Source of the DNA: Gammaproteobacteria bacterium
GTDB taxonomy: Bacteria > Pseudomonadota > Gammaproteobacteria > Steroidobacterales > Steroidobacteraceae
DNA: 33,529 nt
Direction of reading: 5' to 3'
NCBI GenBank assembly: GCA_003132425.1
Contig: PKXS01000097.1
Location: 1-33,529 of the forward strand
The notes under the pieces were generated by a model. The model saw only the letters and a list, made by a program, of their open reading frames with translations, had not been told where the DNA came from and ran no database searches. This document shows positions 742 through 33,529 of the stretch, piece by piece. Numbering within the stretch: position 1 is the stretch's first letter; the number at the start of each line of letters is the position of its first letter. The position numbers and the translations under genes are program-made.

Positions 742-1784
742 GGATCGATGCGCGCGCCGGCGGCCCTTGCTGCGAGTTTGCCGTTATCCAGACCCGCGTT
801 GTTGCGGGCAAGCGCTTGTTCGGCGCGATAGCTCGAGCGCACCAAGGGACCGGACACGCACTCCAGAAACCCAAGGCCCAGGGCCCATTCGCGATACCGA
901 TCGAACTGCTCCGGAGTCACGAACCGCGCGACATTCAAATGATTCGGCGTCGGTCTCAAGTACTGCCCCAGCGTCAGAATATCCACCGCCGCCGCGCGCA
1001 GATCGATCATCGTCGCTCGAATCTCGGCGTCGGTTTCGCCCAGGCCAAGCATCACGCTGGTTTTCGTCAGGACACCGGGTCGAAACGCCTTCGCATGCCG
1101 CAGCACGCCGATGGTTTGCTCATAACCGGCCCGCGGATCGCGCACCGGATGCGTCAGTCGCCGCACCGTCTCGACATTTTGCGCGAACACCTGCAAACCC
1201 GAATCCAGCACCGTTTGCACATCGTGCATCACGCCTTGGAAATCCGGGGTCAGCGCCTCCACGGCTGTGTCCGGGTTGCGGCGCTTGATGGCGCGAATCG
1301 CCGCCGCATAATGCGCGGCGCCGCCGTCGGGCAAGTCGTCACGGTTCACCGACGTGAGTACAACGTACTTCAGCTTCATCAATTCGACCGACCGCGCCAC
1401 GTTCTCCGGTTCTTGGCTATCCAGCCAACCTCGCGGATTCCCCGTATCCACGGCGCAAAAGCGGCACGCGCGCGTGCAAACAGCGCCCATTAACATAATA
1501 GTAGCCGTACCCGCATTCCAGCATTCGCCAATATTGGGGCACTTGGCCTCCTCGCAAACCGTGCTCAAGGCGTGTTCGCGAACGATATGCTTGACCGAAG
1601 CGAATCCGGCGCCGGCCGCCATGGGCGCGCGCAGCCACGGGGGTTTGCGCGCGCCCGCACTCGGGGCTGCGGTGCGCTTAATCCCGTCTTTGATTGCCGT
1701 AAAGCCTTGAGATGTCGTGTATTTCTCGCCGCTGCGGGCCGGCAACTGCGGTTGCAGAATGGGCTTGCCTTTGAATTCAGACAT
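738..1784 (-). CDS. lipA: Lipoyl synthase LipA (radical SAM)
   Basis: LipA inserts two sulfurs into protein-bound octanoyl chains, completing the lipoyl cofactor started by LipB. The 348-residue protein carries the auxiliary-cluster motif Cys77-x4-Cys82-x5-Cys88 ([12 protein letters not shown]), the radical SAM motif Cys103-x3-Cys107-x2-Cys110 (CTRACRFC), and the C-terminal RSSY motif at 316-319 whose serine ligates the auxiliary cluster. The ATG at 1784 lies 4 bp after the murU stop. I see no good Shine-Dalgarno sequence, but TACAAT (1796-1791 on -) sits exactly 6 nt before the ATG, so the gene may also be transcribed from its own promoter as a leaderless mRNA. It overlaps lipB by 4 bp. Confidence 0.97.
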
Positions 1785-1788
1785 GAAG

Positions 1789-2481
1789 CTATTGTACCCC
1801 AGCCTCGTTCAAGGCCCGTAGACGGTCGGGCGCGCCGACGTCCTCCCACAGCCCTCGATACAGCTCCGCAGAACAGCGCCCCGCAGCCATCGAGCGCAGC
1901 AGCAACGGCTTTAAGGGACGCACGCCGTCCTCGCAGCCGGCGAAGAACTCCTCTCGATACACCGCAATGCCGGTGAACGTGTATTGCCCCGCCGCAGCCG
2001 GCAATGCCAAGCCTTGCTCAATTCCAAAATCGCCCTCGGGGTGATGAGGCGGATTCGGCGCGAGGACAAGGTGAGCATCGCTGCGCCCGCCCAGGCTCAA
2101 ATGCTCGAAGGGGTAGTCGGTGAATATATCGCCATTGACCACGGCAAAGGGGCCCGGGCTCAAATGCGGTAGGGCGCGGACGATGCCGCCCGCCGTTCCC
2201 AGCGCACCCGGCCCCTCCTCGCTGTAACTGATAAGCACGCCGTAGCGCGAGCCGTCCCCCAAATACTCGCGAATCTGCGATCCCAGCCATGCCAGATTGA
2301 TCACGATTCGACTCGCGCCGGCGCGCGCAAGTCCAAGCACGTGACGCTCGATGAGCGGCTGCCCGCGCACCCGCAGCAGCGGTTTGGGAATGGAGTCGGT
2401 CAACGGACGCATACGCTCGCCGCGCCCGGCCGCGAGAATCATGGCCGCGCGCGGTCTCTCGGCCGCCGTGCTCACCGTCAC
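1789..2481 (-). CDS. murU: N-acetylmuramate alpha-1-phosphate uridylyltransferase MurU
   Basis: MurU converts MurNAc-1-phosphate plus UTP to UDP-MurNAc in the peptidoglycan recycling route that bypasses de novo synthesis, and so bypasses fosfomycin-sensitive MurA. The 230-residue protein is a nucleotidyltransferase with the signature [13 protein letters not shown] (17-29), IPKPLL and VNGDIFTD. The partner kinase gene amgK lies immediately upstream, which separates MurU from generic sugar-phosphate nucleotidyltransferases. The start is GTG at 2481, overlapping the amgK stop as GTGA and preceded by GGAG at 7 nt. An ATG at 2442 would remove the first 13 residues. It leads into lipA after 4 bp. 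Confidence 0.9.
1791..1796 (-). promoter_or_regulatory. Candidate -10 element for a leaderless lipA transcript
   Basis: TACAAT on the minus strand, followed by AGCTTC and then the lipA ATG. Initiation 7 nt past the hexamer would fall on the A of the ATG. It overlaps the end of murU. I see no convincing -35 hexamer at 16-18 bp, so this rests on the -10 match and on the same layout recurring at other genes in the window. Confidence 0.45.
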
Positions 2482-3512
2482 GCGACCGCTCCGCCTTGAG
2501 CGCGTTGAAACTCCGGTTCGATCCGGCTCGCAATGAAGTCGGCGAATCGGGCCGTCTGCGCATAGGCGCCGGCCGCGGCGCGCGTGTAGTGGAGCACGCG
2601 CGGCAAGTCGTTGAGGTACTGCGACTTGCCGTCGCGATGGTAAAGCCGGGAAAATATGCCCAGCACTTTGATGTGCCGCTGCAATCCGAGTAGGTCGAAC
2701 CAGCGGATGAACTGCGCCTCATCCTCGCCCGCGGCAAGCCCCGCGCCGAGCAATCCTTCGCGGTGCTGCAAAGCCCAGGCGCGCGCGCGCGGCGGCGGCC
2801 AGGCGATATAGCAGTCCTTCAGCAGCGACACCAGATCGTAGGTCACGGGTCCGGTAACCGCATCCTGGAAATCCAGCACGCCGGGATTGTTATCCGCAGT
2901 GAGCAGCAGATTTCGCGAATGATAGTCGCGGTGCACGAAGACCGTAGGCTGCGATAATGCCTCCTGAACGAGAAACTCGAACAACTGGTCCAGCATGCCG
3001 CGCTCCGCGGCGCCGATGCTCATCCCAAGGTGGCGGCCCAAGAACCACTGCGGCATCAGCTCCATCTCGCCCAACAATAATGAGCGGCCGTAGGTAGGCA
3101 ATTCGCGCGCCGCCGCGCCGCCCGCCGTTTGCATTTTCAGCAGCGTATTCAGCGCATCGGCGTACAGGGCGTCCACATTCCGGCCCCCCGCCAGCTCGTC
3201 AAGATATGGACGCGAACCCAAGTCCGACAGCAACAGCAGTCCCTGATCCACATTGCGCGCCAGCAACACCGGCGCATTCACACCCATGCACAGCAGCATT
3301 TGCGCGACCTCGATGAAAGGCCGCAGGTTTTCCTTGTCGGGTGGCGCGTCCATCACGATGTACGTATCCGTGCCGCGCGTTACACGGAAATAGCGGCGAA
3401 AACTAGCGTCCGAGGAGGCAGGTTCGATCCGGCAGCCCGCAAATCCGAGATCGTCGAATACCCACCGAGTCAGAACCGACAGGCGGGAATCGCTTGCATC
3501 CGGTGCACCCAT
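2478..3512 (-). CDS. amgK: Anomeric MurNAc/GlcNAc kinase AmgK
   Basis: AmgK phosphorylates the anomeric carbon of MurNAc (and GlcNAc) to give the 1-phosphate used by MurU. The 344-residue protein belongs to the aminoglycoside phosphotransferase-like kinases: an N-terminal lobe with SSDASFRRYFRV and YIVMDAPP, the catalytic loop HRDYHSRN at about 194-201 (Asp196), and the metal-binding GVLDFQDAVTGP. The reading frame stays open far upstream to 4154, but that part lies opposite lptD. The ATG at 3512 gives the normal family length and follows a TATACT -10 candidate by about 30 nt. The pair amgK-murU next to a divergent lptD is the known arrangement in Pseudomonas, which supports the assignment. 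Confidence 0.9.
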   Translation of the reverse strand: MGAPDASDSRLSVLTRWVFDDLGFAGCRIEPASSDASFRRYFRVTRGTDTYIVMDAPPDKENLRPFIEVAQMLLCMGVNAPVLLARNVDQGLLLLSDLGSRPYLDELAGGRNVDALYADALNTLLKMQTAGGAAARELPTYGRSLLLGEMELMPQWFLGRHLGMSIGAAERGMLDQLFEFLVQEALSQPTVFVHRDYHSRNLLLTADNNPGVLDFQDAVTGPVTYDLVSLLKDCYIAWPPPRARAWALQHREGLLGAGLAAGEDEAQFIRWFDLLGLQRHIKVLGIFSRLYHRDGKSQYLNDLPRVLHYTRAAAGAYAQTARFADFIASRIEPEFQRAQGGAVA

Positions 3513-3548
3513 GCTTGACCATCGACCCACCGCAAATGCGGCGCGCGC

Positions 3549-3565
3549 AGTATACCGCCTATAAT
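3549..3565. promoter_or_regulatory. Back-to-back -10 elements of the amgK/lptD divergent promoter
   Basis: A perfect TATAAT on + (3560-3565) and a TATACT on - (3554-3549) stand 5 bp apart. The predicted start sites are near 3572 for lptD and near 3542 for amgK. The two polymerase footprints would overlap, so they should compete. The TATAAT overlaps an in-frame ATG at 3564, which argues that lptD starts at the later ATG at 3606. The -35 regions are weak on both strands. Confidence 0.55.
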
Positions 3566-3605
3566 GCGCGCGCCCACGCAATCCTCGAGGCGCTGCAATT
3601 TGCTC

Positions 3606-6059
3606 ATGGCTTCTGATGTTCGAGCCGCATTGTTTACTTTCTGCCTCGCGGCAACCTCGATGGTTCGCGCCGCGGATATGTGCCCTTCTCCACCGAAGCA
3701 CGTTGCGCCTGCGGCCGATATAGCCCTCGACGATCTGCGTATTCACATCGACACCGACGGCGCGATTCTCAGCGCCGACGGGACCGATGTTCTGAACGGC
3801 CGCGTGAAAGTCCGCCAGGGAGCGCGCAGCGTGTCGGCCGATACGGTCACCTACGATGAAAAGACCGGCAAAGTATCGGTCAAGGGTTCGGTGGACTTCG
3901 AAGACCCCAAGATGCGCGTGCTCGGCCCGACGGGCAGCTACGACACTGTGGGCCACGCGAATTTCGACCAGGCCGATTTTCAGCTCCTGGATCGCAACGG
4001 GCGCGGTTTCGCCAGTGAAATCGCGGTTCAGCCGGATGGCAAGATCGCGCTCGCGGACGTGCGCTACACGACCTGTCCGGTCGGTGATCAGGATTGGATG
4101 CTGCAGGCATCCTCGATCAACCTCGACACCAAACGGCAGGAGGGCACCGGGCACGGCGTCCTCTTGCGTTTCAAAGATGTGCCCATTTTCTACACACCGT
4201 ATATTTCATTTCCCATGGGCGATGAGCGCAAGAGCGGCTTCTTGTTTCCGACCTTCGGCCACTCCAGCAGCAACGGCTACGAGCTGGAAGTTCCCTACTA
4301 TCTCAATCTGGCGCCGAATTACGATCTCAGCCTCACCCCGGGGCTGCTGTCCGCGCGAGGCGTGCAGCTCGGCGGCGAATTCCGCTATTTGACGGGCAGC
4401 TCGCACGGACAAATCGAGGCCACGTTCCTGCCTGACGATGCGCAGACGCACACCGAGCGTACCTACTTTCACTATTCGGATATCACGGACATCAAGCCGG
4501 GACTGCGTTTCGACACCGACATTGCGAGCGTCAGCGACAGCCAATATTTCGAAGACTTCGCGGTCGGCTCGGAGGCAACCAGCGTGACTTTTCTCGAACG
4601 CCGCGCCGATTTGCTGTACAACGACGACGTCTGGCGGATACGGGCCGAGCTGCAGAACTTTCAGACCATCGATATTGTCAACCTCCCGTACGACGAACGG
4701 CCGTATTCGCGTTTGCCGCGAGTCGATGTGCAAGCGCTGTGGCCGGTACCAGACACCCATTTTGAGTTGGCTCTGCAGAGCGAGGCTGTGAATTTCGTAC
4801 GCGACATAGGCCCCGACGGGGTGCGGCTTCCCACCGGCTTGAGGTTGGATTTGTCGCCGGAGCTGCTTTGGTCGATCCGCGCCTCCGGCTACTACTTCGA
4901 GCCTGCGGTCGGTTATCACTTCACGCAGTACGATTTGGATAACACATTTTCCGGCATGCCGACGACGCCGACGCGCGCGATGCCCTATGGGCGCCTCGAC
5001 ACGGGGTTGGTATTCGAAAGAGATTCCGGCTCCCAGGGCCAGCGCACCCAGATCCTGGAGCCGCGCTTGGTCTACAGCTACGTGCCCTACCGCAATCAAG
5101 ACGAGCTGCCGGTATTCGACAGTGGTCTGCCGGATTTGAATTTGACCGAGTTGTTTCGCACCAATCGTTTCGTGGGCGACGATCGCATCGGCGACGCCAA
5201 CCAGCTCGCCGTCGGTCTGACCACCCGTCTATTCGACCATGACACGGGCGCGCAGTATTTGTCGGCAACCTTGGGCCAGATCCGCTATTTCACCGTTCCG
5301 CGGGTAACGCTGCCCGGACAAACCGACCCGACCTTTGCCCCGAGCTTGGTGCTGCCCGGGGAAACCAACCCGGCGTTGCCCCCTCAGGTGCTCATGACCT
5401 TTCCCGGACAGGCCCCCGTGTTTGCCCCCGCGGAGACGCTCGTGACCTTGCACGGTCAGACCTACGTGACCACCCCAGGAGAGCCGCTGACGAACCTGAC
5501 CCGAGGGCTTCTCCTAAGCTTGCCTGAGCAATCAGTCGGGGCGGGACAATTGCCCGGGTCGCTCGACGCCTCGGACCTGGTCGCCGACATAGCGGTGACG
5601 GCGTACAAGAATTGGGGTCTCAACGTCGACTACAATTGGAACCCGTATACCTCGCATACCGATAAATCGGAGATCGCGCTCCAGTATCGCCCGGATCCCC
5701 GCCGGGTGGTCAATATCGCGTATCGATTCCAAGAAGGGATACTCAAACAGTGGGACGGATCTTTCGCTTGGCCGATTGCCGATCACTGGAACACCGTCGG
5801 GCGCTGGGTCTACTCGCTTCAGGACCACCAGACGATCGAACAGCTGGCCGGATTCGAATACAAAAGCTGCTGCTGGAAAATTCAGATCGTGCAGCGCCGC
5901 TATGTCCGCGTCACCAACGGCACCACCCCGGGACTTGACACCTCGATTGCATTACAATTGGAACTCACGGGCCTAAGTTCGGTCGGAAAAGCGTCGAATA
6001 CCCTCTTGGAGCAGGAAATTCGCGGCTACTCGACCCGCGACCCGAATATCCAGCAATGA
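3606..6059 (+). CDS. lptD: LPS assembly outer membrane protein LptD
   Basis: LptD forms the outer membrane translocon that, with LptE, inserts lipopolysaccharide into the outer leaflet. With the ATG at 3606 the product is 817 residues: a signal peptide (ending about MVRA), an OstA/LptA-like beta-jellyroll (about 40-170), then a long beta-barrel. Four cysteines match the E. coli pattern for the functional disulfides: Cys26 (ADMC), Cys157 (YTTCPVG) and the adjacent pair Cys755-Cys756 (KSCCWKIQIV). An earlier in-frame ATG at 3564 would add 14 residues but overlaps the TATAAT promoter hexamer. Within the barrel, residues about 569-631 are a proline/glycine-rich degenerate repeat (separate entry). 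It heads the lptD-surA-pdxA-rsmA operon, with surA 12 bp downstream. Confidence 0.95.
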   Translation: MASDVRAALFTFCLAATSMVRAADMCPSPPKHVAPAADIALDDLRIHIDTDGAILSADGTDVLNGRVKVRQGARSVSADTVTYDEKTGKVSVKGSVDFEDPKMRVLGPTGSYDTVGHANFDQADFQLLDRNGRGFASEIAVQPDGKIALADVRYTTCPVGDQDWMLQASSINLDTKRQEGTGHGVLLRFKDVPIFYTPYISFPMGDERKSGFLFPTFGHSSSNGYELEVPYYLNLAPNYDLSLTPGLLSARGVQLGGEFRYLTGSSHGQIEATFLPDDAQTHTERTYFHYSDITDIKPGLRFDTDIASVSDSQYFEDFAVGSEATSVTFLERRADLLYNDDVWRIRAELQNFQTIDIVNLPYDERPYSRLPRVDVQALWPVPDTHFELALQSEAVNFVRDIGPDGVRLPTGLRLDLSPELLWSIRASGYYFEPAVGYHFTQYDLDNTFSGMPTTPTRAMPYGRLDTGLVFERDSGSQGQRTQILEPRLVYSYVPYRNQDELPVFDSGLPDLNLTELFRTNRFVGDDRIGDANQLAVGLTTRLFDHDTGAQYLSATLGQIRYFTVPRVTLPGQTDPTFAPSLVLPGETNPALPPQVLMTFPGQAPVFAPAETLVTLHGQTYVTTPGEPLTNLTRGLLLSLPEQSVGAGQLPGSLDASDLVADIAVTAYKNWGLNVDYNWNPYTSHTDKSEIALQYRPDPRRVVNIAYRFQEGILKQWDGSFAWPIADHWNTVGRWVYSLQDHQTIEQLAGFEYKSCCWKIQIVQRRYVRVTNGTTPGLDTSIALQLELTGLSSVGKASNTLLEQEIRGYSTRDPNIQQ
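5310..5495 (+). repeat. Degenerate 14-16-residue Pro/Gly repeat inside lptD
   Basis: Four in-frame units begin at nt 5310, 5352, 5400 and 5448: LPGQTDPTFAPSLV, LPGETNPALPPQVLMT, FPGQAPVFAPAETLVT and LHGQTYVTTPGEPLTN. The shared core is (L/F)(P/H)G(Q/E) followed by T/A, P and an aliphatic tail, with spacing of 42-48 bp. It lies between barrel strands (after RYFTVPRVT, before the ASDLVADIAVTAY strand), where other LptD proteins have a short loop, so it probably forms an extended surface loop. The surface location is inferred. Confidence 0.75.
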
Positions 6060-6071
6060 GCCTGAATTTCT

Positions 6072-9203: not shown

Positions 9204-9226
9204 GGCGCCGTGCGCTCCGCTATACT
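9200..9226 (+). promoter_or_regulatory. Candidate promoter of the uspA-like gene
   Basis: TTGAGG (9200-9205, overlapping the end of rsmA) and TATACT (9221-9226), with a 15-bp spacer. The ATG at 9236 follows the hexamer by 9 nt, so the predicted 5' UTR is only 2-4 nt, and I see no Shine-Dalgarno sequence. It would let this gene be expressed independently of the lptD operon. Confidence 0.5.
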
Positions 9227-9235
9227 TGAACCCGC

Positions 9236-9667
9236 ATGAGCGAATACAAGAAAATCTTGGTGCTGCTGGATCTGTCCGAGGACAGCGACCAGGTGGCCAT
9301 CGCCGGGCGGGATTTGGCGGCGTACTCAAATGCTGCGATAGTGGTCTTGCACGTCGTGGACTTCGTGCCGGTGGACCCTTTGGGCAATACCTTGATGCCG
9401 ACAGTTCAGATCGAAGAAGAATTGGTCGATGCCTCGCGGCGCAAGCTCGGTGAGCTTAGCGCGCGGCTCGGGCTCGCGGCAGCGGTATGCAGAGTCGAAA
9501 CCGGCAATACCAAGACGGAGATTCTGCGTGTCGCGAATGAGGAAAGCGTGGATTTGATCATACTAGGCAGCCGCGAGCGTCACGGTCTCGCAATTCTCGT
9601 GAATTTCACTGAAGATACGGTTCTACACTCGGCTCATTGCGACGTATTGGCCATTCGATTGAAGTAG
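9236..9667 (+). CDS. Universal stress protein, UspA type
   Basis: A 143-residue single-domain Usp protein, starting [25 protein letters not shown] as E. coli UspA does (YKHILIAVDLSPES) and ending with [40 protein letters not shown]. The ATP-binding Usp signature G-x2-G-x9-G-S/T is not intact: the second half reads NFTEDTV where ATP binders have GS. It therefore resembles the non-nucleotide-binding UspA branch. Its role in stress survival is general to the family and not shown here. It sits between rsmA and apaG, which are adjacent in E. coli, and has its own near-leaderless promoter candidate. The apaG start follows its stop by 8 bp. Confidence 0.88.
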
Positions 9668-9675
9668 TGGAAGGT

Positions 9676-10065
9676 ATGCGGACATCTGAGTCGACGAATC
9701 CTAGAATTCGCGTTGAGGTCGAGACTTCCTACATCGAGGAGCAGTCCGACCCGCGCGACAAGCGTTTTGTATTTTCGTACACCATCACGATTCGCAACGA
9801 GGGACAGGTGCCGGCGCGGCTGCTCACGCGGCATTGGATCATCACCGACGCGAACGGTAACGTCAAAGAAACACGCGGTGACGGGGTCGTCGGCGAACAG
9901 CCCTATTTGAAACCAGGCCAAGGATTCCGCTATTCGAGCGGTGCGGTGATCGAGACGCCCGTCGGTACCATGCAAGGCAGCTACCAGATGGTGGCCGACG
10001 ACGGCCGGCAATTCGATGCGCCGATCGCGCCGTTTAGATTGGCAATGCCTGGAGTCCTGCATTAG
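9676..10065 (+). CDS. apaG: ApaG (DUF525) protein
   Basis: ApaG is a small beta-sandwich (fibronectin III-like) protein of unsettled biochemical role, usually encoded between rsmA and apaH. The 129-residue product matches the family throughout: [75 protein letters not shown] and the terminal [10 protein letters not shown] chose the ATG at 9676, preceded by GGAAGG, over an upstream TTG at 9637 that would overlap the uspA-like gene. It is followed by apaH after 14 bp. Confidence 0.95.
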
Positions 10066-10079
10066 ACCGGCGGTGCCAG

Positions 10080-10907
10080 ATGGCGCTCTACGCAATCGGC
10101 GACATACAGGGCTGCGACGTTGAATTGGAAGCGCTGCTCACGGCTCTAAGATTCTCACCGGATCGCGATCGACTCTGGTTCGTCGGAGATCTCGTCAATC
10201 GCGGGCCGGATTCCCTGAAGGTGCTGCGCAGAGTTCGTTCCCTGGGCGGCGCGGCCGGCGTGACTCTGGGGAACCACGATCTGCATCTGTTGGCCGTAGC
10301 CTTTGGCCGCGCGCAGCTGCGCAGCGACGACACGCTTACCGAGCTGCTGGCCGCTCCCGATCGCGATGCGCTTCTCGAGTGGCTCATCGGACGCCCTATG
10401 TTGATCGAGGATCGGGCGCTGAACCTGACCCTGCTGCATGCCGGATTGGCGCCGCAGTGGGATATGGCCACTGCGCGAAGCTGCGCGCGCGAGCTCGAGC
10501 AAGCCCTGCAACGCCGCCCTGAGTCATTGTTCGATCGGCTGTACGGCGATCAGCCGGATATTTGGGGCGACGATCTGGAAGGCGAAGCGCGCCTGCGATT
10601 CATCACCAACTGCTTTACGCGGCTGCGCTATGTCGACGCCGCCGGCCGATTGGTCTTGCGCGCCAAGGGATCCCCGAAAAAAGCGCAGGCGAAGTCGCTG
10701 ATTCCCTGGTTCGAGGCGCCGGACGCGCGCTGGCGCGGGTCCCGCGTGGTTTTTGGACATTGGTCGACGCTGGGGTACTTCACCAATGCGGATGTCATCG
10801 GACTGGATACAGGATGCGTTTGGGGGGGACGGCTGACGGCGCTGCGGCTGGATGCGCCGAACGCCGATCCGGTACAGGTGGGTTGCGGCGGCGCTAAGGC
10901 GCCGTAG
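10080..10907 (+). CDS. apaH: Symmetrical diadenosine tetraphosphatase ApaH
   Basis: ApaH hydrolyses Ap4A to two ADP and removes Np4 caps from RNA 5' ends. The 275-residue protein is a calcineurin-like metallophosphatase with the expected metal motifs: YAIGDIQGC (4-12), WFVGDLVNRGPDS, VTLGNHDLHLLA, LLHAGLAPQWD, the later VVFGHWSTLG, and GLDTGCVWGGRLTALRLD. It is the last gene of the lptD operon. Its final 14 bp overlap the end of the opposing gene at 10894, leaving no room for a dedicated terminator between them. Confidence 0.96.
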   Translation: MALYAIGDIQGCDVELEALLTALRFSPDRDRLWFVGDLVNRGPDSLKVLRRVRSLGGAAGVTLGNHDLHLLAVAFGRAQLRSDDTLTELLAAPDRDALLEWLIGRPMLIEDRALNLTLLHAGLAPQWDMATARSCARELEQALQRRPESLFDRLYGDQPDIWGDDLEGEARLRFITNCFTRLRYVDAAGRLVLRAKGSPKKAQAKSLIPWFEAPDARWRGSRVVFGHWSTLGYFTNADVIGLDTGCVWGGRLTALRLDAPNADPVQVGCGGAKAP

Positions 10908-11490: not shown

Positions 11491-11547
11491 AGCTAACCTC
11501 CGTCCGCTTAAGACCACGCCAGTTGCGGCGAAGTTTCACCACACCGT

Positions 11548-11553
11548 TATAAT
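11548..11553 (+). promoter_or_regulatory. Perfect -10 element for the kynurenine cluster, leaderless layout
   Basis: TATAAT, then GGCGTG, then the ATG at 11560. Initiation 7 nt past the hexamer would begin exactly at the start codon. A weak TTGCGG at 11523-11528 gives a 19-bp spacer. An in-frame GTG at 11557 lies just before the ATG and would not be on such a transcript. There is no Shine-Dalgarno sequence. Confidence 0.6.
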
Positions 11554-11559
11554 GGCGTG

Positions 11560-12078
11560 ATGCAAGTAGCGGCACCCTTCAACCTGCGCCGATGGATCGA
11601 TCAGCATCGCGATTTGCTGCGGCCGCCCGTCGGCAACAAGCTGCTGTATCAGGACAGCGGGTTCATAGTCATGGCCGTCGGCGGTCCGAACTCGCGCAAA
11701 GACTTCCATCACGATCCCAGCGAAGAGCTTTTCCTCCAACTCGAGGGAGACATGGTGCTGAGGACCGTGCAGGACGGCCGGGTGATCGACGTGCAAATCC
11801 GCGAAGGCGACATGTTCCTGCTGCCGCCGGAAGTCCCCCATTCCCCGCAGCGCCCCGCGGGGAGCGTCGGACTCGTCGTCGAGCGCCGGCGCAATCCCGA
11901 CGAGCTTGACGGCTTTTCCTGGTATTGCGAAAACTGTGGAAATCGCTTGTACCTCGAACGCATTGCCGTGCGCGACATCGAAACGCAGCTACCGGAGATT
12001 TTCTCGCGGTTTTTCTCGAGCATTCAACATCGCACCTGCGGCTCCTGCGCAACCGTCATGCAAGCACCGCCCAAGTGA
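11560..12078 (+). CDS. nbaC: 3-hydroxyanthranilate 3,4-dioxygenase
   Basis: This enzyme opens the ring of 3-hydroxyanthranilate to 2-amino-3-carboxymuconate semialdehyde, the precursor of quinolinate. The 172-residue cupin has the iron-binding set His50/Glu56 (DFHHDPSEELF) and His94 (PPEVPHSPQRP), matching His51/Glu57/His95 of the Ralstonia enzyme. It also has the C-terminal rubredoxin-like site Cys123/Cys126 (YCENCGNRLY) and Cys160/Cys163 (TCGSC) typical of bacterial and fungal forms. I place the start at the ATG at 11560, 6 nt after TATAAT. It is first in a cluster with kynureninase and kynurenine 3-monooxygenase, which fixes the pathway. Confidence 0.95.
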   Translation: MQVAAPFNLRRWIDQHRDLLRPPVGNKLLYQDSGFIVMAVGGPNSRKDFHHDPSEELFLQLEGDMVLRTVQDGRVIDVQIREGDMFLLPPEVPHSPQRPAGSVGLVVERRRNPDELDGFSWYCENCGNRLYLERIAVRDIETQLPEIFSRFFSSIQHRTCGSCATVMQAPPK

Positions 12079-12097
12079 TGGCCGCGGACATCAATTG

Positions 12098-18344: not shown

Positions 18345-18363
18345 ACCGACGCGGACTCGCAAC

Positions 18364-20442: not shown

Positions 20443-20463
20443 ATAAGGAATCATTGAGTATGA

Positions 20464-21065: not shown

Positions 21066-21071
21066 GCTCCG

Positions 21072-21488
21072 CTAATTCCCCAGGGCCCTGGCGACGGTCG
21101 CTGAGTCGACAGGCGACGCCGAATTGCCGAAATTTGAGCGCACATAGGTGAGCAATGCGGCGGCGTCCTCAGCCTTCATCCAGCCGAACGATAACATCAT
21201 CGTGCCGTATCGCCCGGCGGCCATGGAGGCGGGTCTTTGCCCCCTGACCACCCACAGCGCCAGCGCCGCCGGATCGCCGCGCACCACCGGGGACCCGGCC
21301 AAGCTTGGATAGACGCCGGGTATGCCCTGCCCGTTTTGCTGGTGGCACGGCACGCAGTTGGCGGTGTAAATCCGTTCACCCGCATCCGCAGCCGGCGGCG
21401 CGGCCGGCGCAGCGCCGGGAGTTGGCCCCGAGCAGGCGGCTAAGCTCTCGATGAATGCGATCAGAAATAGTGCGCTGCGCGTTTGCAT
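21072..21488 (-). CDS. Lipoprotein c-type cytochrome (monohaem)
   Basis: A 138-residue protein starting at the ATG at 21488. It has a lipoprotein signal (ALFLIAFIESLAAC, lipobox LAAC with Cys19), a flexible Ala/Pro-rich linker (20-35), and one haem-binding motif CVPCH at 45-49 in IYTANCVPCHQQNGQGIPGVYPSLAGS. Met97, Met98 or Met104 (GTMMLSFGWM) probably provide the axial ligand. It should be a membrane-tethered periplasmic electron carrier. The partner oxidase or dehydrogenase is not nearby. AGGA 8 nt upstream can serve as ribosome site, although the same bases form a TAGGAT -10-like hexamer. The frame runs open far upstream through the divergent gene, which I discount. Confidence 0.88.
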   Translation of the reverse strand: MQTRSALFLIAFIESLAACSGPTPGAAPAAPPAADAGERIYTANCVPCHQQNGQGIPGVYPSLAGSPVVRGDPAALALWVVRGQRPASMAAGRYGTMMLSFGWMKAEDAAALLTYVRSNFGNSASPVDSATVARALGN

Positions 21489-21500
21489 AGGGTAAATCCT

Positions 21501-21521
21501 AGCAGACTGGCGCAGTCTGCT
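21501..21521. promoter_or_regulatory. Perfect 8-bp inverted repeat, candidate operator
   Basis: Arms AGCAGACT (21501-21508) and AGTCTGCT (21514-21521) with a 5-nt spacer GGCGC, in the 48-bp gap between the divergent cytochrome and alkX genes. It ends 3 bp before the TATCAT -10 of alkX, so it covers the spacer and -35 region of that promoter. It also touches the TAGGAT hexamer of the cytochrome gene. That placement fits a dimeric repressor controlling both genes. No regulator gene is adjacent. Confidence 0.5.
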
Positions 21522-21524
21522 TGT

Positions 21525-21530
21525 TATCAT
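21525..21530 (+). promoter_or_regulatory. Candidate -10 element for a leaderless alkX transcript
   Basis: TATCAT, then CGCGCC, then the ATG at 21537: the same 6-nt spacing seen at lipA, nbaC and tsaC. There is no Shine-Dalgarno sequence between them. The -35 region is occupied by the inverted repeat and has no clear consensus. Confidence 0.5.
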
Positions 21531-21536
21531 CGCGCC

Positions 21537-22628
21537 ATGCCGATCACGCTGGACCATCTGCGCCGCTACGCCGTCGCGCGCTCGCTGTTCAAGCCGACGA
21601 CTCTCGGGCGTGCGATCGGCAAGCTCGGCTTCGTGCAAGCCGATCCGATCCGTGCTCCGGCCCGCGCCCAAGACCTCACGCTGCGCCACCGCGTTGCGGG
21701 CTATTGTGCCGGCGACCTCGAGCGCCGCTATCCGACATTGCCGCTCGAGGAGGACTATTTCGTCAACTACGGATTTCTGCCGCGTGCGCACCACGGATTG
21801 ATGCATCCGCGCCCGCCGGCCGCGGCGTGGAACCCGCTGCGCCGCGCGCAGGCCAAGGCTGTCCTGGCCTTTATCCGCGAGTGCGGCGCCGCGCATCCGC
21901 GCGAGGTGGACGCGCATTTCGCTCACGGCAAGGTGACCAACTGGTTCGGCGGTTCGTCGAACGCAAGCACGCAGCTGCTCGATGAAATGCACTATCGCGG
22001 TCTATTGCGAGTCGCGCGCCGGGAGGGGGGCACGCGAGTCTTTGCCGCGCGCGACACGGCGGCGGCGGCCCAGGCCGGCACGGCCGGTTCGCGGATGGAC
22101 AGGCTAGTGGACTTGGTGGTGCGCAAGTACGCGCCGTTGCCGGCAGCCAGTCTCGGTCAACTCGTGAGCCACTTGCGCGGCGGCGCGCCGCAATGGGCCT
22201 CGCAGCGCGCGGCGGCGCTCACGCGCGCCAAGCAACGCGTGGCCCATGCACGGGTGGACGGCGTCGACTGGTACTGGCCCGCGGAGGAATCGCCGGCCTC
22301 CAAGCGCTGGCGGCCCGACGACTGCGTGCGCCTGCTCACACCCTTCGATCCCATTGCGTGGGATCGCCGCCGCTTCGAGGTCTTTTGGGGTTGGGCCTAT
22401 CGCTTCGAAGCGTACACACCCGCACCGAAGCGCAAACTCGGCTACTACGCGCTGCCCTTGTTATGGCACGATCGCGTGATTGGCTGGGGCAACGTGGCGG
22501 TGGCCGAAGGAACACTGCAGTGCTCCTTCGGATACAGCGGCGGCAGCGCGCCGTACGATGCGGCGTTTCGCGCCGGCCTCGACGCCGAACTCGCGCGAAT
22601 GCGTTTATTTCTGGGTCTGGCGGGTTGA
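21537..22628 (+). CDS. ycaQ: AlkX/YcaQ-type DNA glycosylase (winged-helix HTH_42 family)
   Basis: A 363-residue member of the HTH_42 (AlkZ/YcaQ) family, winged-helix proteins that remove bulky or crosslinked alkylated bases. The catalytic motif of the YcaQ/AlkX branch is QxD, and here Gln34-Ala-Asp36 occurs in LGFVQADPIRAPARAQDLTLRHRV; the AlkZ branch has QxQ. Other family blocks: EEDYFVNYGFLPR, VTNWFGGSSNASTQLLDEMHYRGLLRVARREGGTRVF, LLTPFDPIAWDRRRFEVFWGWAYRFEAYTPAPKRKLGYYALPLLW. E. coli YcaQ repairs interstrand crosslinks; activity on the same substrates is inferred. It starts at the ATG at 21537, 6 nt after TATCAT, and ends 19 bp from a convergent gene. Confidence 0.88.
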   Translation: MPITLDHLRRYAVARSLFKPTTLGRAIGKLGFVQADPIRAPARAQDLTLRHRVAGYCAGDLERRYPTLPLEEDYFVNYGFLPRAHHGLMHPRPPAAAWNPLRRAQAKAVLAFIRECGAAHPREVDAHFAHGKVTNWFGGSSNASTQLLDEMHYRGLLRVARREGGTRVFAARDTAAAAQAGTAGSRMDRLVDLVVRKYAPLPAASLGQLVSHLRGGAPQWASQRAAALTRAKQRVAHARVDGVDWYWPAEESPASKRWRPDDCVRLLTPFDPIAWDRRRFEVFWGWAYRFEAYTPAPKRKLGYYALPLLWHDRVIGWGNVAVAEGTLQCSFGYSGGSAPYDAAFRAGLDAELARMRLFLGLAG

Positions 22629-22647
22629 TTCGGTGCCGGCCGGCGCG

Positions 22648-24407: not shown

Positions 24408-24416
24408 ATCCTTCTC

Positions 24417-25412
24417 CTAGCCCGCGCTCAGCTCGAGGTCATCCATGTCCATTCCCACGCCGCTCGCTCGCTGCAGGCGATCGAGGATCGCCGCCCATCG
24501 CTCGCCCTGCGGCAATTCCTGCACGAGAATTCTACTGCACCCCGCCCGATCGAGCGTGCGCAAATGATTGTAGAGATTGTGGGCATACGTGTCGGCCTTT
24601 TTACCCGCATTGATCCACGTCATGTAGCGCTGCGTATTCAGCGGCGGCCGCATGGCGAGCACTGCCACCTTCTCCTGCCGCGCCGCTATCTCGCCCGCTC
24701 GCGCTTCCATCTCGTCCGAGGACACGATCTCGAGCGGCGTGGAAGGCGCGTAATGCAGCATTTGGTCCCCGGGCGCGCGCGGCGCGGCGCCGCCTTGCGC
24801 AAGCTCGCCCACCGTTTGTTCGAGCTGCGAACGGGTGATGAGCCCGGGACGCAGCAAGCGCACGGTATTATCCAAGCAAGAAACGATGGTCGATTCCAAA
24901 CCGATGGGCGATTCTCCTCCATCCAATATGACGCGGATCGCCTCGCCGAACTCTTCGCGCACATGCTCGGTTTTCGTCGGACTCAAGCGGCCATAGCGAT
25001 TGGCGGAGGGGGCAGCGATGCCGCCGCCGAAGGCGGTCAACAGCTGCTGCGCCATCGGGTGCGACGGCACTCGAATGCCGATGCTGTCTTGGCCGCCGCT
25101 GACGATGTCGTTGACGTGGTCCGCCTTCGGCAGAATCAGCGTCAAGGGACCCGGCCAGAACTTAGCCGCCAATTGTTCGGCGAGCGGCGGCACCTCCGAT
25201 ACCCAGCGATGCAAGTATCGCGGATTGTCCAAGTGAACGATCACGGGATGGTCCGCCGGACGGCCCTTGACCTCGAAAATCTTGCGCACGGCGGCCGGAT
25301 TCGAGGCGTTCGCGCCGAGTCCGTAAACCGTCTCGGTCGGGAATACGACCAGGTCGCCGGCGCGCAAGGCCTCGACGGCTTCTTCGATTTCAGTCTGTGT
25401 AGCTCTTACCAC
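24417..25412 (-). CDS. tsaC: L-threonylcarbamoyladenylate synthase, Sua5 type
   Basis: It makes threonylcarbamoyl-AMP from threonine, bicarbonate and ATP, the first step of t6A37 modification in ANN-decoding tRNAs. The 331-residue length shows the long Sua5 form rather than the ~190-residue TsaC: a YrdC domain (1 to about 200; PTETVYGLGANASNP at 25-39, KGRPADHPVIVHL, FWPGPLTLIL, SIGIRVPSHPMAQQLL, APSANRYGRLSPT, GLESTIVSC), a linker, and a C-terminal Sua5 domain from about 230 (LHYAPSTPLEIV to the end). The start is GTG at 25412, exactly 6 nt after TATCAT. No Shine-Dalgarno is visible. It leads the operon with the decarboxylase and DUF882 genes. Confidence 0.94.
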   Translation of the reverse strand: MVRATQTEIEEAVEALRAGDLVVFPTETVYGLGANASNPAAVRKIFEVKGRPADHPVIVHLDNPRYLHRWVSEVPPLAEQLAAKFWPGPLTLILPKADHVNDIVSGGQDSIGIRVPSHPMAQQLLTAFGGGIAAPSANRYGRLSPTKTEHVREEFGEAIRVILDGGESPIGLESTIVSCLDNTVRLLRPGLITRSQLEQTVGELAQGGAAPRAPGDQMLHYAPSTPLEIVSSDEMEARAGEIAARQEKVAVLAMRPPLNTQRYMTWINAGKKADTYAHNLYNHLRTLDRAGCSRILVQELPQGERWAAILDRLQRASGVGMDMDDLELSAG

Positions 25413-25418
25413 ACACGC

Positions 25419-25424
25419 ATGATA
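25419..25424 (-). promoter_or_regulatory. Candidate -10 element for a leaderless tsaC transcript
   Basis: On the minus strand TATCAT is followed by GCGTGT and then the GTG start of tsaC. A TTGCTG at 25446-25441 gives a 16-bp spacer. The layout matches lipA, nbaC and alkX, but with a GTG start codon. Confidence 0.45.
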
Positions 25425-25494
25425 TCAAGACTGCGGCACCAGCAAGCGCCGCAAAATGAATGTCGCAAAAGAGCTACATGAGGTAATTTCGCGG

Positions 25495-28359: not shown

Positions 28360-28382
28360 GCATATCCTAAGGTTAGATTCAT

Positions 28383-30236: not shown

Positions 30237-30243
30237 GCGTCCT

Positions 30244-31641
30244 TTATGCAGCTTCGCCCGAGCGCGCGCCGTTCATTACATCGGATAATGCGGACGTATA
30301 GGCTTCAATATCGGCCTCAAGCTTCGTTTCCGTGGCGCAGACCAGCAGCGCGTGTCCCAATTCCGGAAAGGCGTGCCTAAGATCGAGCCCACCCAGGATT
30401 CCACGATGCGCCAGCGCCGCGAGCACGGGCGCCACCGGCCGATCGAGCAGCAGCACGGCTTCGTGGAAGCGCGGCGCGGTAAAGGCGAGCCTGACGCCCT
30501 TGACCCGCGTGAGTGCGGCCGCCAAATCGTGCGTGCGCTGTACACTGGCGGCGGCGACGCGCTCCAGCCCTTCCGCACCGAGCAGCGCCAGGTAGATCGT
30601 CGCGGCAGTGACCATGAGGCCTTGGTTCGTGCAGATGTTCGATGTCGCCTTGCTGCGTCGAATGTGCTGTTCGCGTGCCTGCAGCGTTAAGCTGAACCCC
30701 GGCCGCCCCTCCACGTCCACGGTGCCCCCGACGATTCGGCCCGGCATTTGCCGCACGTACTGCATTCGCGTTGTCATGAAGCCGAAATACGGGCCGCCCG
30801 AGGAAAGCGGCACGCCCAGCGCCTGTCCCTCGCCGCAAACGATATCCGCGCCCTGTGTGCCCTCGAAAACTTGGCCCCACCGGCCGGGCGGCTTGAGCAG
30901 CGCCAGCGACGTTGGATTCACCACCGCGATCAGCAGAATCTTGTTGGCATGCGCCCAGTCAGTCAGGCTGTCGACTTCCTCCAAGTTGCCAAAGAAATTC
31001 GGTTGCTGAACCACCAATGCCGTGAAATCTTGACCATTGTAGGCCTGCAGAGATTCCAGCAGCGTTCGCCCCTGTCCGCGATCGAAATCCACCGGCTCGA
31101 AACTGATGTCTTGATTGCCGGCGATCGCGCGCGCAACTTGCGCGTAGGTCGGATTCAGCGAACGCGGCAGCAACACGCGGCGCGAGCTCGAGGCGCGGTT
31201 CGAACGCACCGCCATCAGACAGGCCTCCGCAAGCGCGGATGCGCCGTCATAAAGCGAGGCATTCGATACTTCCATCCGCGTCAAAGCGCACATCATCGAT
31301 TGAAATTCGTAGATGAGCTGCAACGTGCCTTGGCTCGCCTCGGCTTGATAGGGTGTGTAGGCGGAGTAGAACTCGCCGCGCGTGGCGATTGCCCATACGG
31401 GTGCCGGGATATGATGCTCATAGGCGCCGGCGCCGATGAAGCTCAACGGCCTTCCGTCGCGCGCCGCGCGCTCCATAAGCAGGCGCCCCACCTCCATTTC
31501 CGACAGGGCCGGCGGCACGCCGTCGAGCGCCTTTATTTTCAGTTCGGGAGGTATTTCATCGAACAAGTCTTCGATGGACCTCACCCCGATGAGTTCGAGC
31601 ATGCGGGCCACATCGTCGGGGGTATGCGGTATGAACGCCAC
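30244..31641 (-). CDS. gcvPA: Glycine decarboxylase P-protein subunit 1
   Basis: The partner half of the split P-protein, 465 residues from the GTG at 31641. AGGGG lies 5 nt upstream, and the N-terminus [19 protein letters not shown] is the usual family start. Blocks: [119 protein letters not shown]. The frame is open to 31746 through gcvH, which I exclude. It lies 8 bp after gcvH. Confidence 0.95.
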
Positions 31642-31649
31642 GGTGGCCC

Positions 31650-32045
31650 CTACTTGGCTTCGTCGGTCAATGTGCTCGCATAGTCGCCGGCACTCATGAG
31701 CGGGGCGCTCGCGCCGGGAGAATCGACTTCGATCCGTATCAGCCACCCCGCGCCGTAGGGTTCCTGGTTCAGCAGTTCCGGCCGGCTTGCCAAGTCCGCA
31801 TTACTCGCCGTGACCTTGCCGCTGACCGGGCTGTACACATCCGAGGCCGCCTTGACCGACTCGACCACGGCGCAGCCTTCGCCTGCCTTCAGGTGGCGGC
31901 CCACTTCCGGCACCTCGACAAACACCAAATCGCCGAGCGCGCCCTGCGCATGATCCGTAATGCCGATCTCAACCTGCCCGTTCGGCAGCCGGCGCACCCA
32001 CTCGTGACTGCGGGTGTACTGCAATTCGCTGGGAATACTGCTCAA
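31650..32045 (-). CDS. gcvH: Glycine cleavage system H protein
   Basis: GcvH shuttles the aminomethyl group on a lipoyl arm between the P, T and L proteins. The 131-residue protein has [40 protein letters not shown] and the lipoylation site Lys65 in [16 protein letters not shown]. The start codon is TTG at 32045, with AAGGAG 8 nt upstream and the typical MSxIPxELxYTxSHEW N-terminus. The lipoyl group would be supplied by LipB/LipA, encoded at the other end of the window. Confidence 0.96.
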
Positions 32046-32061
32046 AGCGATTTCTCCTTCA

Positions 32062-33159
32062 CTATGTTGGAATCAATGCCTTGCCATGGCGCACGAACGG
32101 CGGCTTGACGATGCTGGCCGCGTGCAGCTTGCCGCGAATGTCGACCTGCACTCGCGCTGCGGCTGCCCTCGGCACGCGAGCCAGCGCAATCGACCGGTTT
32201 AGGGTCGGCGAGAAGGTGCCGCTCGTGACTTCGCCGAAGGCCGCATCCGAGCCTGCGCCCGTGATCACTTTCTGATGGCTGCGCAGCACTCCGCGGTCTT
32301 CGAGCAGCAAGCCCACGAGTTGGTTCCCGGCGGCGGACCGAGCTTGCTCAAGCGCCGCGCGCCCGATGAATTCGCGATCAATGGGATCGAAGGCCACCGT
32401 CCATTCCAGACCCGACTCCAAAGGGTGATGCGCTTCATCCAGGTCATTGCCGTAAAGGCACATGCCCGCCTCCAGGCGCAGCGTATCCCTTGCGCCCAAG
32501 CCCGCGGGTGCGATGCCTTGACGCCCAAGCGCTGCCCACGTTGCGGGGGCGTCCGCGGCGGGGAGCATGATCTCGAAGCCATCCTCGCCGGTATAACCGG
32601 TGCGCGCGATGAACCAAGCGCCAAACTCGGCGCCGACAAACGGCTTTAAGTCAAGGGCGGCGGCGCGGCGGCTCTCGGGCAGCAGCGCAAGCACCTTGAC
32701 CCGTGCTTGCGGCCCCTGCGCCGCGATCATCGCCAGATCGCTGCGATCCCGTACGGCGACCGCGAAGCGCGCCGCGCGCTCGCGTATCCAAGCGAGGTCC
32801 TTGCCGCGCGTTCCGGCGTTGATGACCAGGCGAAACCAGGATTCCGTCAGGAAGTAGACGATCAAGTCGTCGAGCACGCCGCCGCTCGGCAAGAGCATGC
32901 AGGAATACAACGCCTTGCCCGGCACTTTGAGCCGATCGACGTCGTTGGCCAGCAAAGACTTCAGGAATTCGCGCGACCTGGCGCCGGTCACATCGACGAC
33001 CCCCATGTGCGACACATCGAACATGCCCGCATCGCGCCGCACCGCGTGGTGCTCTTCGATCTGCGAGCCATAGTGCAAGGGCATATCCCAACCGCCGAAG
33101 TCGACGATTTTCGCGCCTTGCAGTACATGGCTGTCGTAGAGCGGGGTCTTCAGGCCCAT
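32062..33159 (-). CDS. gcvT: Glycine cleavage system T protein (aminomethyltransferase)
   Basis: GcvT releases ammonia from the aminomethyl-lipoyl GcvH and makes 5,10-methylene-tetrahydrofolate. From the ATG at 33159 the product is 365 residues, preceded by GAGG at 5 nt, and begins GLKTPLYDSHVLQGAKIVDFGGWDMPLHYGSQIEEHHAVRRDAGMFDVSHMG (read in two parts: GLKTPLYDSHVLQGAKIVDF and GGWDMPLHYGSQIEEHH). Later blocks are FIARTGYTGEDGFEIML, GLGARDTLRLEAGMCLYGNDLDE, and VTSGTFSPTLNRSIALA. It is the first gene behind the glycine riboswitch. L-protein (dihydrolipoamide dehydrogenase) is not encoded here. Confidence 0.96.
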   Translation of the reverse strand: MGLKTPLYDSHVLQGAKIVDFGGWDMPLHYGSQIEEHHAVRRDAGMFDVSHMGVVDVTGARSREFLKSLLANDVDRLKVPGKALYSCMLLPSGGVLDDLIVYFLTESWFRLVINAGTRGKDLAWIRERAARFAVAVRDRSDLAMIAAQGPQARVKVLALLPESRRAAALDLKPFVGAEFGAWFIARTGYTGEDGFEIMLPAADAPATWAALGRQGIAPAGLGARDTLRLEAGMCLYGNDLDEAHHPLESGLEWTVAFDPIDREFIGRAALEQARSAAGNQLVGLLLEDRGVLRSHQKVITGAGSDAAFGEVTSGTFSPTLNRSIALARVPRAAAARVQVDIRGKLHAASIVKPPFVRHGKALIPT

Positions 33160-33190
33160 CGCAACCTCGCTGCGAATGAATTCAAAGGAC

Positions 33191-33213
33191 ACACGGCACT
33201 TTCGTGCCGCGCC
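33191..33213 (-). promoter_or_regulatory. GNRA-capped hairpin between the glycine riboswitch and gcvT
   Basis: In the mRNA sense CGGCAC-GAAA-GUGCCG (33209-33194) forms a perfect 6-bp stem with a GNRA tetraloop, extendable by G-U, C-G and G-U pairs to about 9 bp. It sits just downstream of aptamer 2 and about 25 nt before the gcvT GAGG site. No U-tract follows, so it is not a standard terminator. It may be part of the expression platform. Confidence 0.5.
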
Positions 33214-33404
33214 CCTCTGTCCTTCGGACCTGAGAGATCAAGCGCCAATGCGCGCTGTTCCCCTTCGGTGGACCTGCACCATTGACGATGCGATCGCTCT
33301 CCAGAGATCGCGAGAGACTGCCGTTCATGTGCCTGAGCGTTTCCGGGCGGTTGCGCCTTCGGCGGTCCTTAAGATTTAAGGACTCTCTCCGGACAGCTCT
33401 TGTC
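33211..33404 (-). ncRNA. Tandem glycine riboswitch upstream of gcvT
   Basis: Two aptamer-like units lie in series in the gcv leader. Aptamer 1 (about 33398-33303) has GGAGAG, a perfect P-stem GUCCUUAA/UUAAGGAC (33383-33365), CCGAAGGCGCAA (33362-33351) and AAACGCUCAGGCA (33342-33330). Aptamer 2 (about 33302-33211) has GGAGAGCGAUCGC (33302-33290), CCGAAGGGG (33268-33260), CUCUCAGG (33236-33229) and GGACAGAGGGG (33222-33212). These are the conserved core motifs of the gcvT element. Glycine binding normally turns on degradation genes such as gcvT. Exact boundaries are estimates. Confidence 0.92.
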
Positions 33405-33415
33405 GCGATAGGTGA

Positions 33416-33446
33416 ATGATACACGATCCGCTTCAGGTCATGGCAA
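33416..33446 (-). promoter_or_regulatory. Candidate promoter of the gcv operon
   Basis: On the minus strand TTGCCA (33446-33441) and TATCAT (33421-33416) have a 19-bp spacer. The predicted start near 33409 is just ahead of the first aptamer, giving a leader of about 250 nt. The spacer is longer than ideal. Confidence 0.45.
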
Positions 33447-33454
33447 GACCGGCA

Positions 33455-33460
33455 TAGAAT
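33455..33460 (+). promoter_or_regulatory. Candidate -10 element for the right-end gene
   Basis: TAGAAT, 7 nt before the ATG at 33468, with no Shine-Dalgarno sequence between. It is back to back with the gcv promoter. Confidence 0.4.
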
Positions 33461-33467
33461 TCGGCCG

Positions 33468-33529
33468 ATGAAGCACCACATTTTGGTTATCGTGTCGATG
33501 CTCGGCGCGCTATGCGCGCCGGCCGCACC
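33468..33529 (+). CDS. Start of a secreted protein, cut by the window edge
   Basis: Twenty codons are visible: MKHHILVIVSMLGALCAPAA. This is a signal peptide with a short basic n-region, a hydrophobic core and an approaching AxA-type cleavage site. Nothing of the mature protein is present, so function cannot be judged. The ATG follows a TAGAAT hexamer by 7 nt. It is divergent from the glycine operon. Confidence 0.6.
   Translation, partial: MKHHILVIVSMLGALCAPAA

What the first reader, a model, noticed from the sequence alone, without database searches (positions are those of the whole stretch)
1784..33468. Recurrent leaderless-promoter layout: -10 hexamer exactly 6 nt before the start codon
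Four genes show a -10-like hexamer, 6 nt, then the start codon: lipA (TACAAT-AGCTTC-ATG), nbaC (TATAAT-GGCGTG-ATG), alkX (TATCAT-CGCGCC-ATG), tsaC (TATCAT-GCGTGT-GTG). Three more have 7-9 nt: the right-end gene (TAGAAT, 7), the cytochrome (TAGGAT, 7) and the UspA gene (TATACT, 9). The six genes other than the cytochrome lack a visible Shine-Dalgarno, while genes elsewhere in the window (gcvH, gcvT, the decarboxylase, the 10894 gene) have strong ones. Initiation about 7 nt past the hexamer would put the start codon at the RNA 5' end. Leaderless mRNAs are common in actinobacteria, Deinococcus and archaea but are regarded as minor in gammaproteobacteria, so a fixed spacing used for housekeeping genes would be notable. 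-35 matches are weak.
Basis: partly seen in the sequence, partly recalled or inferred. Interest (0 to 1): 0.72.

Follow-up and report, generated by a model that had tools for sequence, protein, structure and literature searches.

The report
Leaderless genes in a gammaproteobacterium
In this bacterium a promoter box sits right against the start codon of some everyday genes, so their messenger RNAs very probably begin at the start codon itself; the layout is real and kept by evolution, but it is an example of a kind already known.

Summary
All seven hexamers are where stated, and 4 of 32 genes called in the window have TANNNT exactly 6 nt before the start (p 1.7e-4). In 859 kb from the rest of this 4.08 Mb genome, 18 of 673 starts, chosen without any motif, have TANNNT at 6 nt (shuffled mean 5.9, p 4e-5). 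A second genome of the family peaks at 6-9 nt (30 against 5.6, p 4e-13). An E. coli sample shows no excess. TA-led genes mostly lack Shine-Dalgarno sites. In orthologues the box and spacing persist: lipA 26 of 30, nbaC 21 of 29, alkX 8 of 11, tsaC 23 of 28. Where the tsaC start codon lies elsewhere, the box lies with it. Of 8 nbaC orthologues without the box, 6 have a Shine-Dalgarno site. So these are very probably promoters of leaderless mRNAs. 'Exactly 6 nt' is the mode, not a rule (uspA: 5-9). The kind is known: a 2011 survey predicted leaderless genes in 15 of 239 gammaproteobacterial genomes, averaging 4.5% of genes; I estimate 4-8% here. New member of a known kind; no RNA 5'-end data.

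The parts
1791..1796 (-). -10 hexamer TACAAT of lipA, 6 nt before ATG 1782-1784; overlaps the end of the upstream nucleotidyltransferase gene (1789-2481, minus)
   Evidence: box in 26 of 30 family loci fetched, 24 at exactly 6 nt
738..1784 (-). lipA, lipoyl synthase
   Evidence: Pfam Radical_SAM and LIAS_N
11548..11553 (+). -10 hexamer TATAAT of nbaC, 6 nt before ATG 11560
   Evidence: in all 21 same-genus loci fetched with a readable start, 20 at 6 nt and 1 at 7
11560..12078 (+). nbaC, 3-hydroxyanthranilate 3,4-dioxygenase
   Evidence: Pfam 3-HAO
21525..21530 (+). -10 hexamer TATCAT of alkX with TGn in front, 6 nt before ATG 21537
   Evidence: box in 8 of 11 loci with an aligned start
21537..22628 (+). 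alkX, AlkZ-like DNA glycosylase
   Evidence: Pfam AlkZ-like
25419..25424 (-). -10 hexamer TATCAT of tsaC, extended -10 (TGA before TATCAT), 6 nt before GTG 25410-25412
   Evidence: box in 23 of 28 loci with a readable start
24417..25412 (-). tsaC/sua5, threonylcarbamoyl-AMP synthase
   Evidence: Pfam Sua5_yciO_yrdC and Sua5_C
33455..33460 (+). -10-like TAGAAT, 7 nt before ATG 33468 of the right-end gene (cut off by the window end)
   Evidence: not tested in relatives
21496..21501 (-). -10-like TAGGAT, 7 nt before ATG 21486-21488 of the cytochrome c gene (21072-21488)
   Evidence: cytochrome c by Pfam; not tested in relatives
9221..9226 (+). -10-like TATACT, 9 nt before ATG 9236 of the UspA gene (9236-9667)
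   Evidence: box at 5-9 nt in 21 of 30 loci

Best explanation
The hexamers before lipA, nbaC, alkX and tsaC are -10 elements of ordinary housekeeping-sigma promoters placed directly against the coding sequence. RNA polymerase opens DNA at the hexamer and starts at the purine about 7 nt past it, which is the A (or G) of the start codon. The mRNA therefore has no leader, and ribosomes must bind a 5'-terminal AUG or GUG instead of a Shine-Dalgarno site. In this genome it is a minority mode beside Shine-Dalgarno-led genes. Shown here: position-specific enrichment, fewer Shine-Dalgarno sites, conservation in orthologues, the box lying with the start codon where that differs. Inferred: the RNA 5' end itself, the sigma factor, and 70S-type initiation (knowledge from other bacteria).
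For: Genome-wide peak outside the window: TANNNT at 6 nt in 18 of 673 starts against 5.9 shuffled; 6-9 nt 46 against 21.9 (p 4.7e-6); G031 30 at 6-9 nt among 299 starts against 5.6 (p about 4e-13). Of 64 XY...Z patterns at 6-8 nt, TA...T ranks first in G031 and third in G000, behind two Shine-Dalgarno-like patterns. SD in TA-led genes: 3 of 39 against 157 of 634, and 2 of 24 against 78 of 275. TGn before the box in 9 of 39 against 36 of 634 in G000 (p 6e-4); -35 match better in both genomes (p 0.02, window included, and 4e-4). Orthologues with the box: lipA 26 of 30, nbaC 21 of 29, alkX 8 of 11, tsaC 23 of 28, while spacer bases vary in lipA, nbaC and tsaC. tsaC: in five loci whose start lies elsewhere the box sits 6-9 nt before that ATG. 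nbaC: SD in 0 of 21 with box, in 6 of 8 without (p 6e-5). TATAATN{6,8}ATG 526 against 202 for N{14,16} in 37 family genomes, higher in 35. E. coli sample: 5 against 10.4.
Against: No RNA 5' ends for this MAG, which is also rated 5.7% contaminated. About a third of the hexamers at 6 nt outside the window (5.9 of 18) are expected by chance, so single unconserved cases are uncertain. TGn is not enriched in G031 (1 of 24 against 13 of 275). uspA spacing varies from 5 to 9. The alkX spacer is itself conserved (7 loci), so alkX says little about drift. TATAAT-to-GTG counts are not enriched (191 against 173 in 60 genomes), although GTG starts are weakly so at gene level, and tsaC uses GTG. The SD-for-box swap is not significant in lipA (p 0.054) or uspA (p 0.069) and absent in tsaC and alkX. 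Outside the family set only 10 of 42 further readable lipA loci have a box. Orthologue counts are not phylogenetically independent.
Confidence: 0.87

Rival explanations
1. For the genes with spacing 7-9 (right end, cytochrome, UspA) and perhaps others, the boxes are true -10 elements that give very short leaders of 1-5 nt rather than strictly leaderless mRNAs. This can be true beside the best explanation, so the two confidences do not add to one.
For: Spacings 7-9 occur: G031 7, 8, 9 and 6 hits at k = 6, 7, 8, 9; uspA loci 5-9.
Against: For lipA, nbaC, alkX and tsaC the mode is exactly 6 (24, 20, 7 and 15 loci), which puts +1 on the start codon at the usual 7-nt distance (general knowledge).
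Confidence: 0.3
2. The AT-rich hexamer is a translation element (for example an S1-binding or unstructured site) in a longer leader, not a promoter.
For: Nakagawa et al. 2017 (PMC5397173, passages; author name from the text's own citation of its earlier work and recall) say that AT-rich bias before non-SD starts might also reflect S1 binding.
Against: The signal is the specific TA...T frame at a set distance, not general AT-richness, and comes with TGn in one genome and better -35 matches in both.
Confidence: 0.05
3. Chance hexamers before gene starts.
For: In the window alone the bare pattern is not in excess (6 against 4.3).
Against: Enrichment outside the window and conservation in orthologues.
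Confidence: 0.02

Closest known systems
TA-led (leaderless) genes of bacteria, Zheng et al. 2011 (PMC3160421; passages and section 7 read)
   Same: TANNNT about 10-12 bp upstream of the start, a minority of genes (mean 4.5%, range 3.0-5.7, in 15 of 239 gammaproteobacterial genomes), mostly in orders near the root of the class.
   Different: The passages read name Xanthomonadales and Legionellales, not Steroidobacterales; they show no per-gene conservation across a family.
-10 motif adjacent to ORFs in Deinococcus-Thermus, Zhong et al. 2025 (PMC12340547; outline, introduction and one results section read)
   Same: TANNNT about 6-7 bp before the ORF, T1, A2 and T6 nearly invariant, conserved within the genus; the introduction reports that mutating it disturbs expression.
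   Different: There about one third of genes; here about 4-8%.
Leaderless mRNAs of Mycobacterium, Shell et al. 2015 (PMC4633059; passages read)
   Same: 5'-terminal ATG or GTG as the signal, TTG poor.
   Different: GTG is efficient in mycobacteria; here the evidence for GTG is mixed apart from tsaC.
Leaderless mRNAs of E. coli and Klebsiella pneumoniae by TSS profiling, 2012 (PMC3415461; two passages read)
   Same: Gammaproteobacteria with TSSs exactly on the start codon.
   Different: 18 and 10 genes only; no positional excess in my E. coli sample of 142 genes.

Membership tests
Leaderless (TA-led) bacterial genes | TANNNT -10-like hexamer at about 6-9 nt before the start, enriched over shuffles | tested here: met
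Leaderless (TA-led) bacterial genes | Few Shine-Dalgarno sites in the same genes | tested here: met
   3 of 39 against 157 of 634 (p 0.012); 2 of 24 against 78 of 275 (p 0.032)
Leaderless (TA-led) bacterial genes | Hexamer and spacing conserved in orthologues | tested here: met
   lipA, nbaC, alkX, tsaC; for uspA the hexamer is kept but not the spacing
Leaderless (TA-led) bacterial genes | RNA 5' end at the start codon | not testable with these tools
   no transcriptome for this MAG
Leaderless (TA-led) bacterial genes | Start codon AUG (or GUG), not UUG | tested here: inconclusive
   Window left out, TTG starts show 0 boxes at 6-8 nt, but only 1.1 and 0.2 were expected; in the window one start called as TTG (17118) has one at 7 nt. 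GTG is enriched at gene level (7 against 2.9; 3 against 0.6) but not in the 60-genome pattern counts (191 against 173)
Housekeeping-sigma promoter | -35 element or TGn extension with the -10 | tested here: inconclusive
   TGn enriched in G000, not in G031; -35 match slightly better in both

The most novel reading that the evidence does not exclude
In Steroidobacteraceae a defined set of housekeeping genes (lipA, nbaC, alkX, tsaC and others) has been held leaderless by selection across many species with spacing locked near 6 nt, including a tsaC kept on a leaderless GUG start in all 18 loci that align at that codon and carry the box. That would mean per-gene selection for leaderless translation, for instance to keep these proteins made when SD-led initiation is down, with ribosomes that accept a 5' GUG better than those of E. 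coli.
Probability: 0.25. Interest if true: 0.6.

Novelty: new member of a known kind. Interest (0 to 1): 0.4.

Why it matters
It adds a gammaproteobacterial family to those with a real leaderless fraction and shows the mode kept gene by gene over a genus or family, with an apparent switch to Shine-Dalgarno initiation in more distant relatives (nbaC). It also helps with start codons: a box 6 nt before an in-frame ATG or GTG points to the true start. For the field it is incremental, since the kind was predicted for this class in 2011.

Tried and rejected
Chance was rejected for the four spacing-6 genes. A general AT-rich or S1 element was considered and found unlikely. The idea that the lipA box is only the end of the upstream nucleotidyltransferase gene: 20 of 30 lipA loci carry that gene's C-terminal signature and 18 of these have the box; of the other 10 (one of them the window's own locus, where the gene is present but its signature differs) 8 have it, so the box appears to follow lipA; this test is crude. 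GUG-led leaderless genes as a general habit: not supported by whole-genome pattern counts (191 against 173), weakly supported at gene level. A class-wide claim was dropped: over 141 class genomes the signal-to-control ratio is 1.83 in the 35 with least background and 0.96 in the 41 with most, so AT-rich genomes cannot be judged this way. A first binning of the same counts by the control itself was biased and was replaced by binning on the backward-read control. My first SD window (-17 to -4) also counted GGAG lying directly before the lipA box, too far from the start: there lipA showed no swap at all (7 and 29 with box, 7 and 29 without); a 4-10 nt spacing was used afterwards. The column conservation printed was made on rows chosen for having the box, so it is not used as evidence for T1, A2 and T6. 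A weaker first gene caller (470 genes; 14 at 6 nt) was replaced (705 genes). The Xanthomonas dRNA-seq paper that I recall as reporting leaderless mRNAs is not held and is not used.

What was left out of counts. Each genome search returned loci for at most 30 matches: lipA 30 of 37 family genomes, tsaC 30 of 45 genomes, nbaC 30 of 38, uspA 30 of 39 with a match. alkX gave 18 loci in 15 genomes; 7 were dropped (4 distant partial matches, 3 second pieces of the same two genomes). One tsaC and one nbaC locus start off the contig end; one further tsaC locus had no candidate start. Of the 80 named lipA loci, 44 were aligned (L052-L095) and 42 had a readable start.
Full report
What is there. The window is contig C104 of a 4.08 Mb, 146-contig genome, 96.6% complete and 5.7% contaminated.

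Chance. In the window by itself the bare pattern is not in excess (6 against 4.3). A gene caller was written that picks genes and start codons from dicodon scores only, with no SD or promoter term. On 60 stretches of the genome plus the window (893 kb) it called 705 genes. TANNNT by distance to the start, 0 to 9 nt: 5, 5, 7, 4, 6, 4, then 22 at 6 nt, 10 at 7, 13 at 8, 8 at 9; the mean at 12-49 nt is 6.55. Without the window: 18 of 673 at 6 nt against a mean of 5.9 in 60 dinucleotide shuffles (largest 13), p 4.3e-5; spacing 7 not in excess (8 against 5.3), spacing 8 in excess (13 against 5.5, p 0.004); 6-9 nt together 46 against 21.9, p 4.7e-6. In G031, a single-contig genome of another genus of the family (400 kb sampled, 299 genes), 6-9 nt holds 7, 8, 9 and 6 against 5.6 in all, p about 4e-13. 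Controls by the same code: E. coli K-12, 200 kb and 142 genes, 5 against 10.4; G190 (another family of the class) 10 against 10.4; G140 (another) 8 against 6.0, TANNAT 5 against 1.8. The excess over expectation is about 4% of genes in G000 and 8% in G031.

Is it a promoter. Among all 64 patterns XY...Z at 6-8 nt (window left out), TA...T ranks first in G031 and third in G000, where the two above it (GG...A, AG...G) look like Shine-Dalgarno sites. With SD defined as a 4-mer ending 4-10 nt before the start, TA-led genes have one in 3 of 39 (others 157 of 634, p 0.012) in G000 without the window and 2 of 24 (others 78 of 275, p 0.032) in G031. A TGn extension precedes the box in 9 of 39 against 36 of 634 (p 6e-4) in G000 but in 1 of 24 against 13 of 275 in G031. 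The best -35 match is a little better than in other genes (mean 2.96 against 2.73 of 6, p 0.02, window included; G031 3.21 against 2.61, p 4e-4).

Conservation. Starts were chosen without the motif, nearest the codon aligned to codon 1, ATG favoured. lipA: 26 of 30 family loci have the box, 24 at exactly 6 nt and 2 at 7; of 42 further readable named loci, mostly from other groups, 10 have one. nbaC: 21 of 29, 20 at 6 and 1 at 7; these 21 are all the same-genus loci fetched with a readable start (one same-genus locus is cut by a contig end; one genome's 44% match was not fetched), and the 8 without are other genera and families. alkX: 8 of 11, including fragmentary loci of two genomes. tsaC: 23 of 28; in 18 the box precedes the GTG aligned with the window's GTG (14 at 6 nt, 2 at 5, 2 at 7), and in five loci whose start lies elsewhere the box lies 6-9 nt before that ATG. 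uspA: 21 of 30, but at 5-9 nt. The spacer bases vary in lipA, nbaC and tsaC while the hexamer stays; in alkX the spacer is conserved too. For nbaC, SD occurs in 0 of 21 loci with the box and in 6 of 8 without (p 5.9e-5); pooled over five genes, in 1 of 109 with box and 14 of 61 without. Gene by gene the others are not significant: lipA p 0.054, uspA 0.069, alkX and tsaC 1. No count corrects for relatedness: the nbaC contrast may be a single switch.

Breadth. Exact TATAATN{6,8}ATG against TATAATN{14,16}ATG: family 526 against 202 in 37 genomes, higher in 35; other families of the order 450 against 346 in 23. In 141 genomes of the class outside the family, sorted by the tool's backward-read control: 300 against 164 in the 35 of least background, falling to 5028 against 5217 in the 41 of most. 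For GTG the same count in 60 family genomes gives 191 against 173, and in the 18 genomes counted for both codons ATG 203 against 76 and GTG 73 against 65. At gene level GTG starts do show boxes at 6-8 nt, window left out (7 against 2.9, p 0.03; G031 3 against 0.6, p 0.026). The GUG question is open.

Comparison with print. Zheng et al. 2011 (PMC3160421) predicted leaderless genes from the same signal in 15 of 239 gammaproteobacterial genomes, mean 4.5% of genes (3.0-5.7), mostly Xanthomonadales and Legionellales. Zhong et al. 2025 (PMC12340547) describe the same layout, TANNNT 6-7 bp before the ORF, as a working -10 in Deinococcus. A review (PMC9031893, passages) states that in E. coli GUG works much less well than AUG on leaderless mRNA. 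In Cupriavidus 4.67% of primary TSSs gave leaders under 5 nt (PMC7563307, passages). A paper on gene-start prediction cites predicted leaderless transcription in 21.6% of bacterial species (PMC9581028, passages). The search 'leaderless' with 'Steroidobacter' gave one paper, on an enzyme fusion by its title and abstract start; the listings showed me no report for this order.

Verdict. Real, found across the genome, conserved, and best read as leaderless promoters; a new member of a known kind.

Noticed in passing
window 33207-33403, minus strand: Two glycine riboswitch aptamers in tandem (Rfam RF00504, 57.9 and 37 bits) in front of gcvT, back to back with the right-end leaderless candidate: a long structured leader next to a gene that may have none.
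   Followed up: partly
window 21489-21536: 48-bp divergent intergenic region between cytochrome c and alkX with both -10 boxes against their starts and a perfect 9-nt inverted repeat (21501-21509 / 21513-21521) between them, a possible shared operator; by eye not seen in the printed upstream stretches of other alkX loci.
   Followed up: partly
locus L152 8941-8985 (G000 contig C41): A second divergent pair, 43 bp apart, with TANNNT 8 nt before both start codons.
   Followed up: no
window 25410-25424, minus strand, and L193-L209: tsaC keeps GTG as start codon in all 18 loci that align there and carry the box; among the 14 with spacing 6 the letters AGTCTTG before the hexamer are conserved in at least 13 at each position (extended -10).
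   Followed up: partly
window 9236-10907: A universal-stress-protein gene sits between the rRNA adenine dimethylase gene and apaG plus a phosphoesterase gene (apaH by position), in a run lptD-surA-pdxA-rsmA-uspA-apaG-apaH, with its own TATACT box.
   Followed up: no
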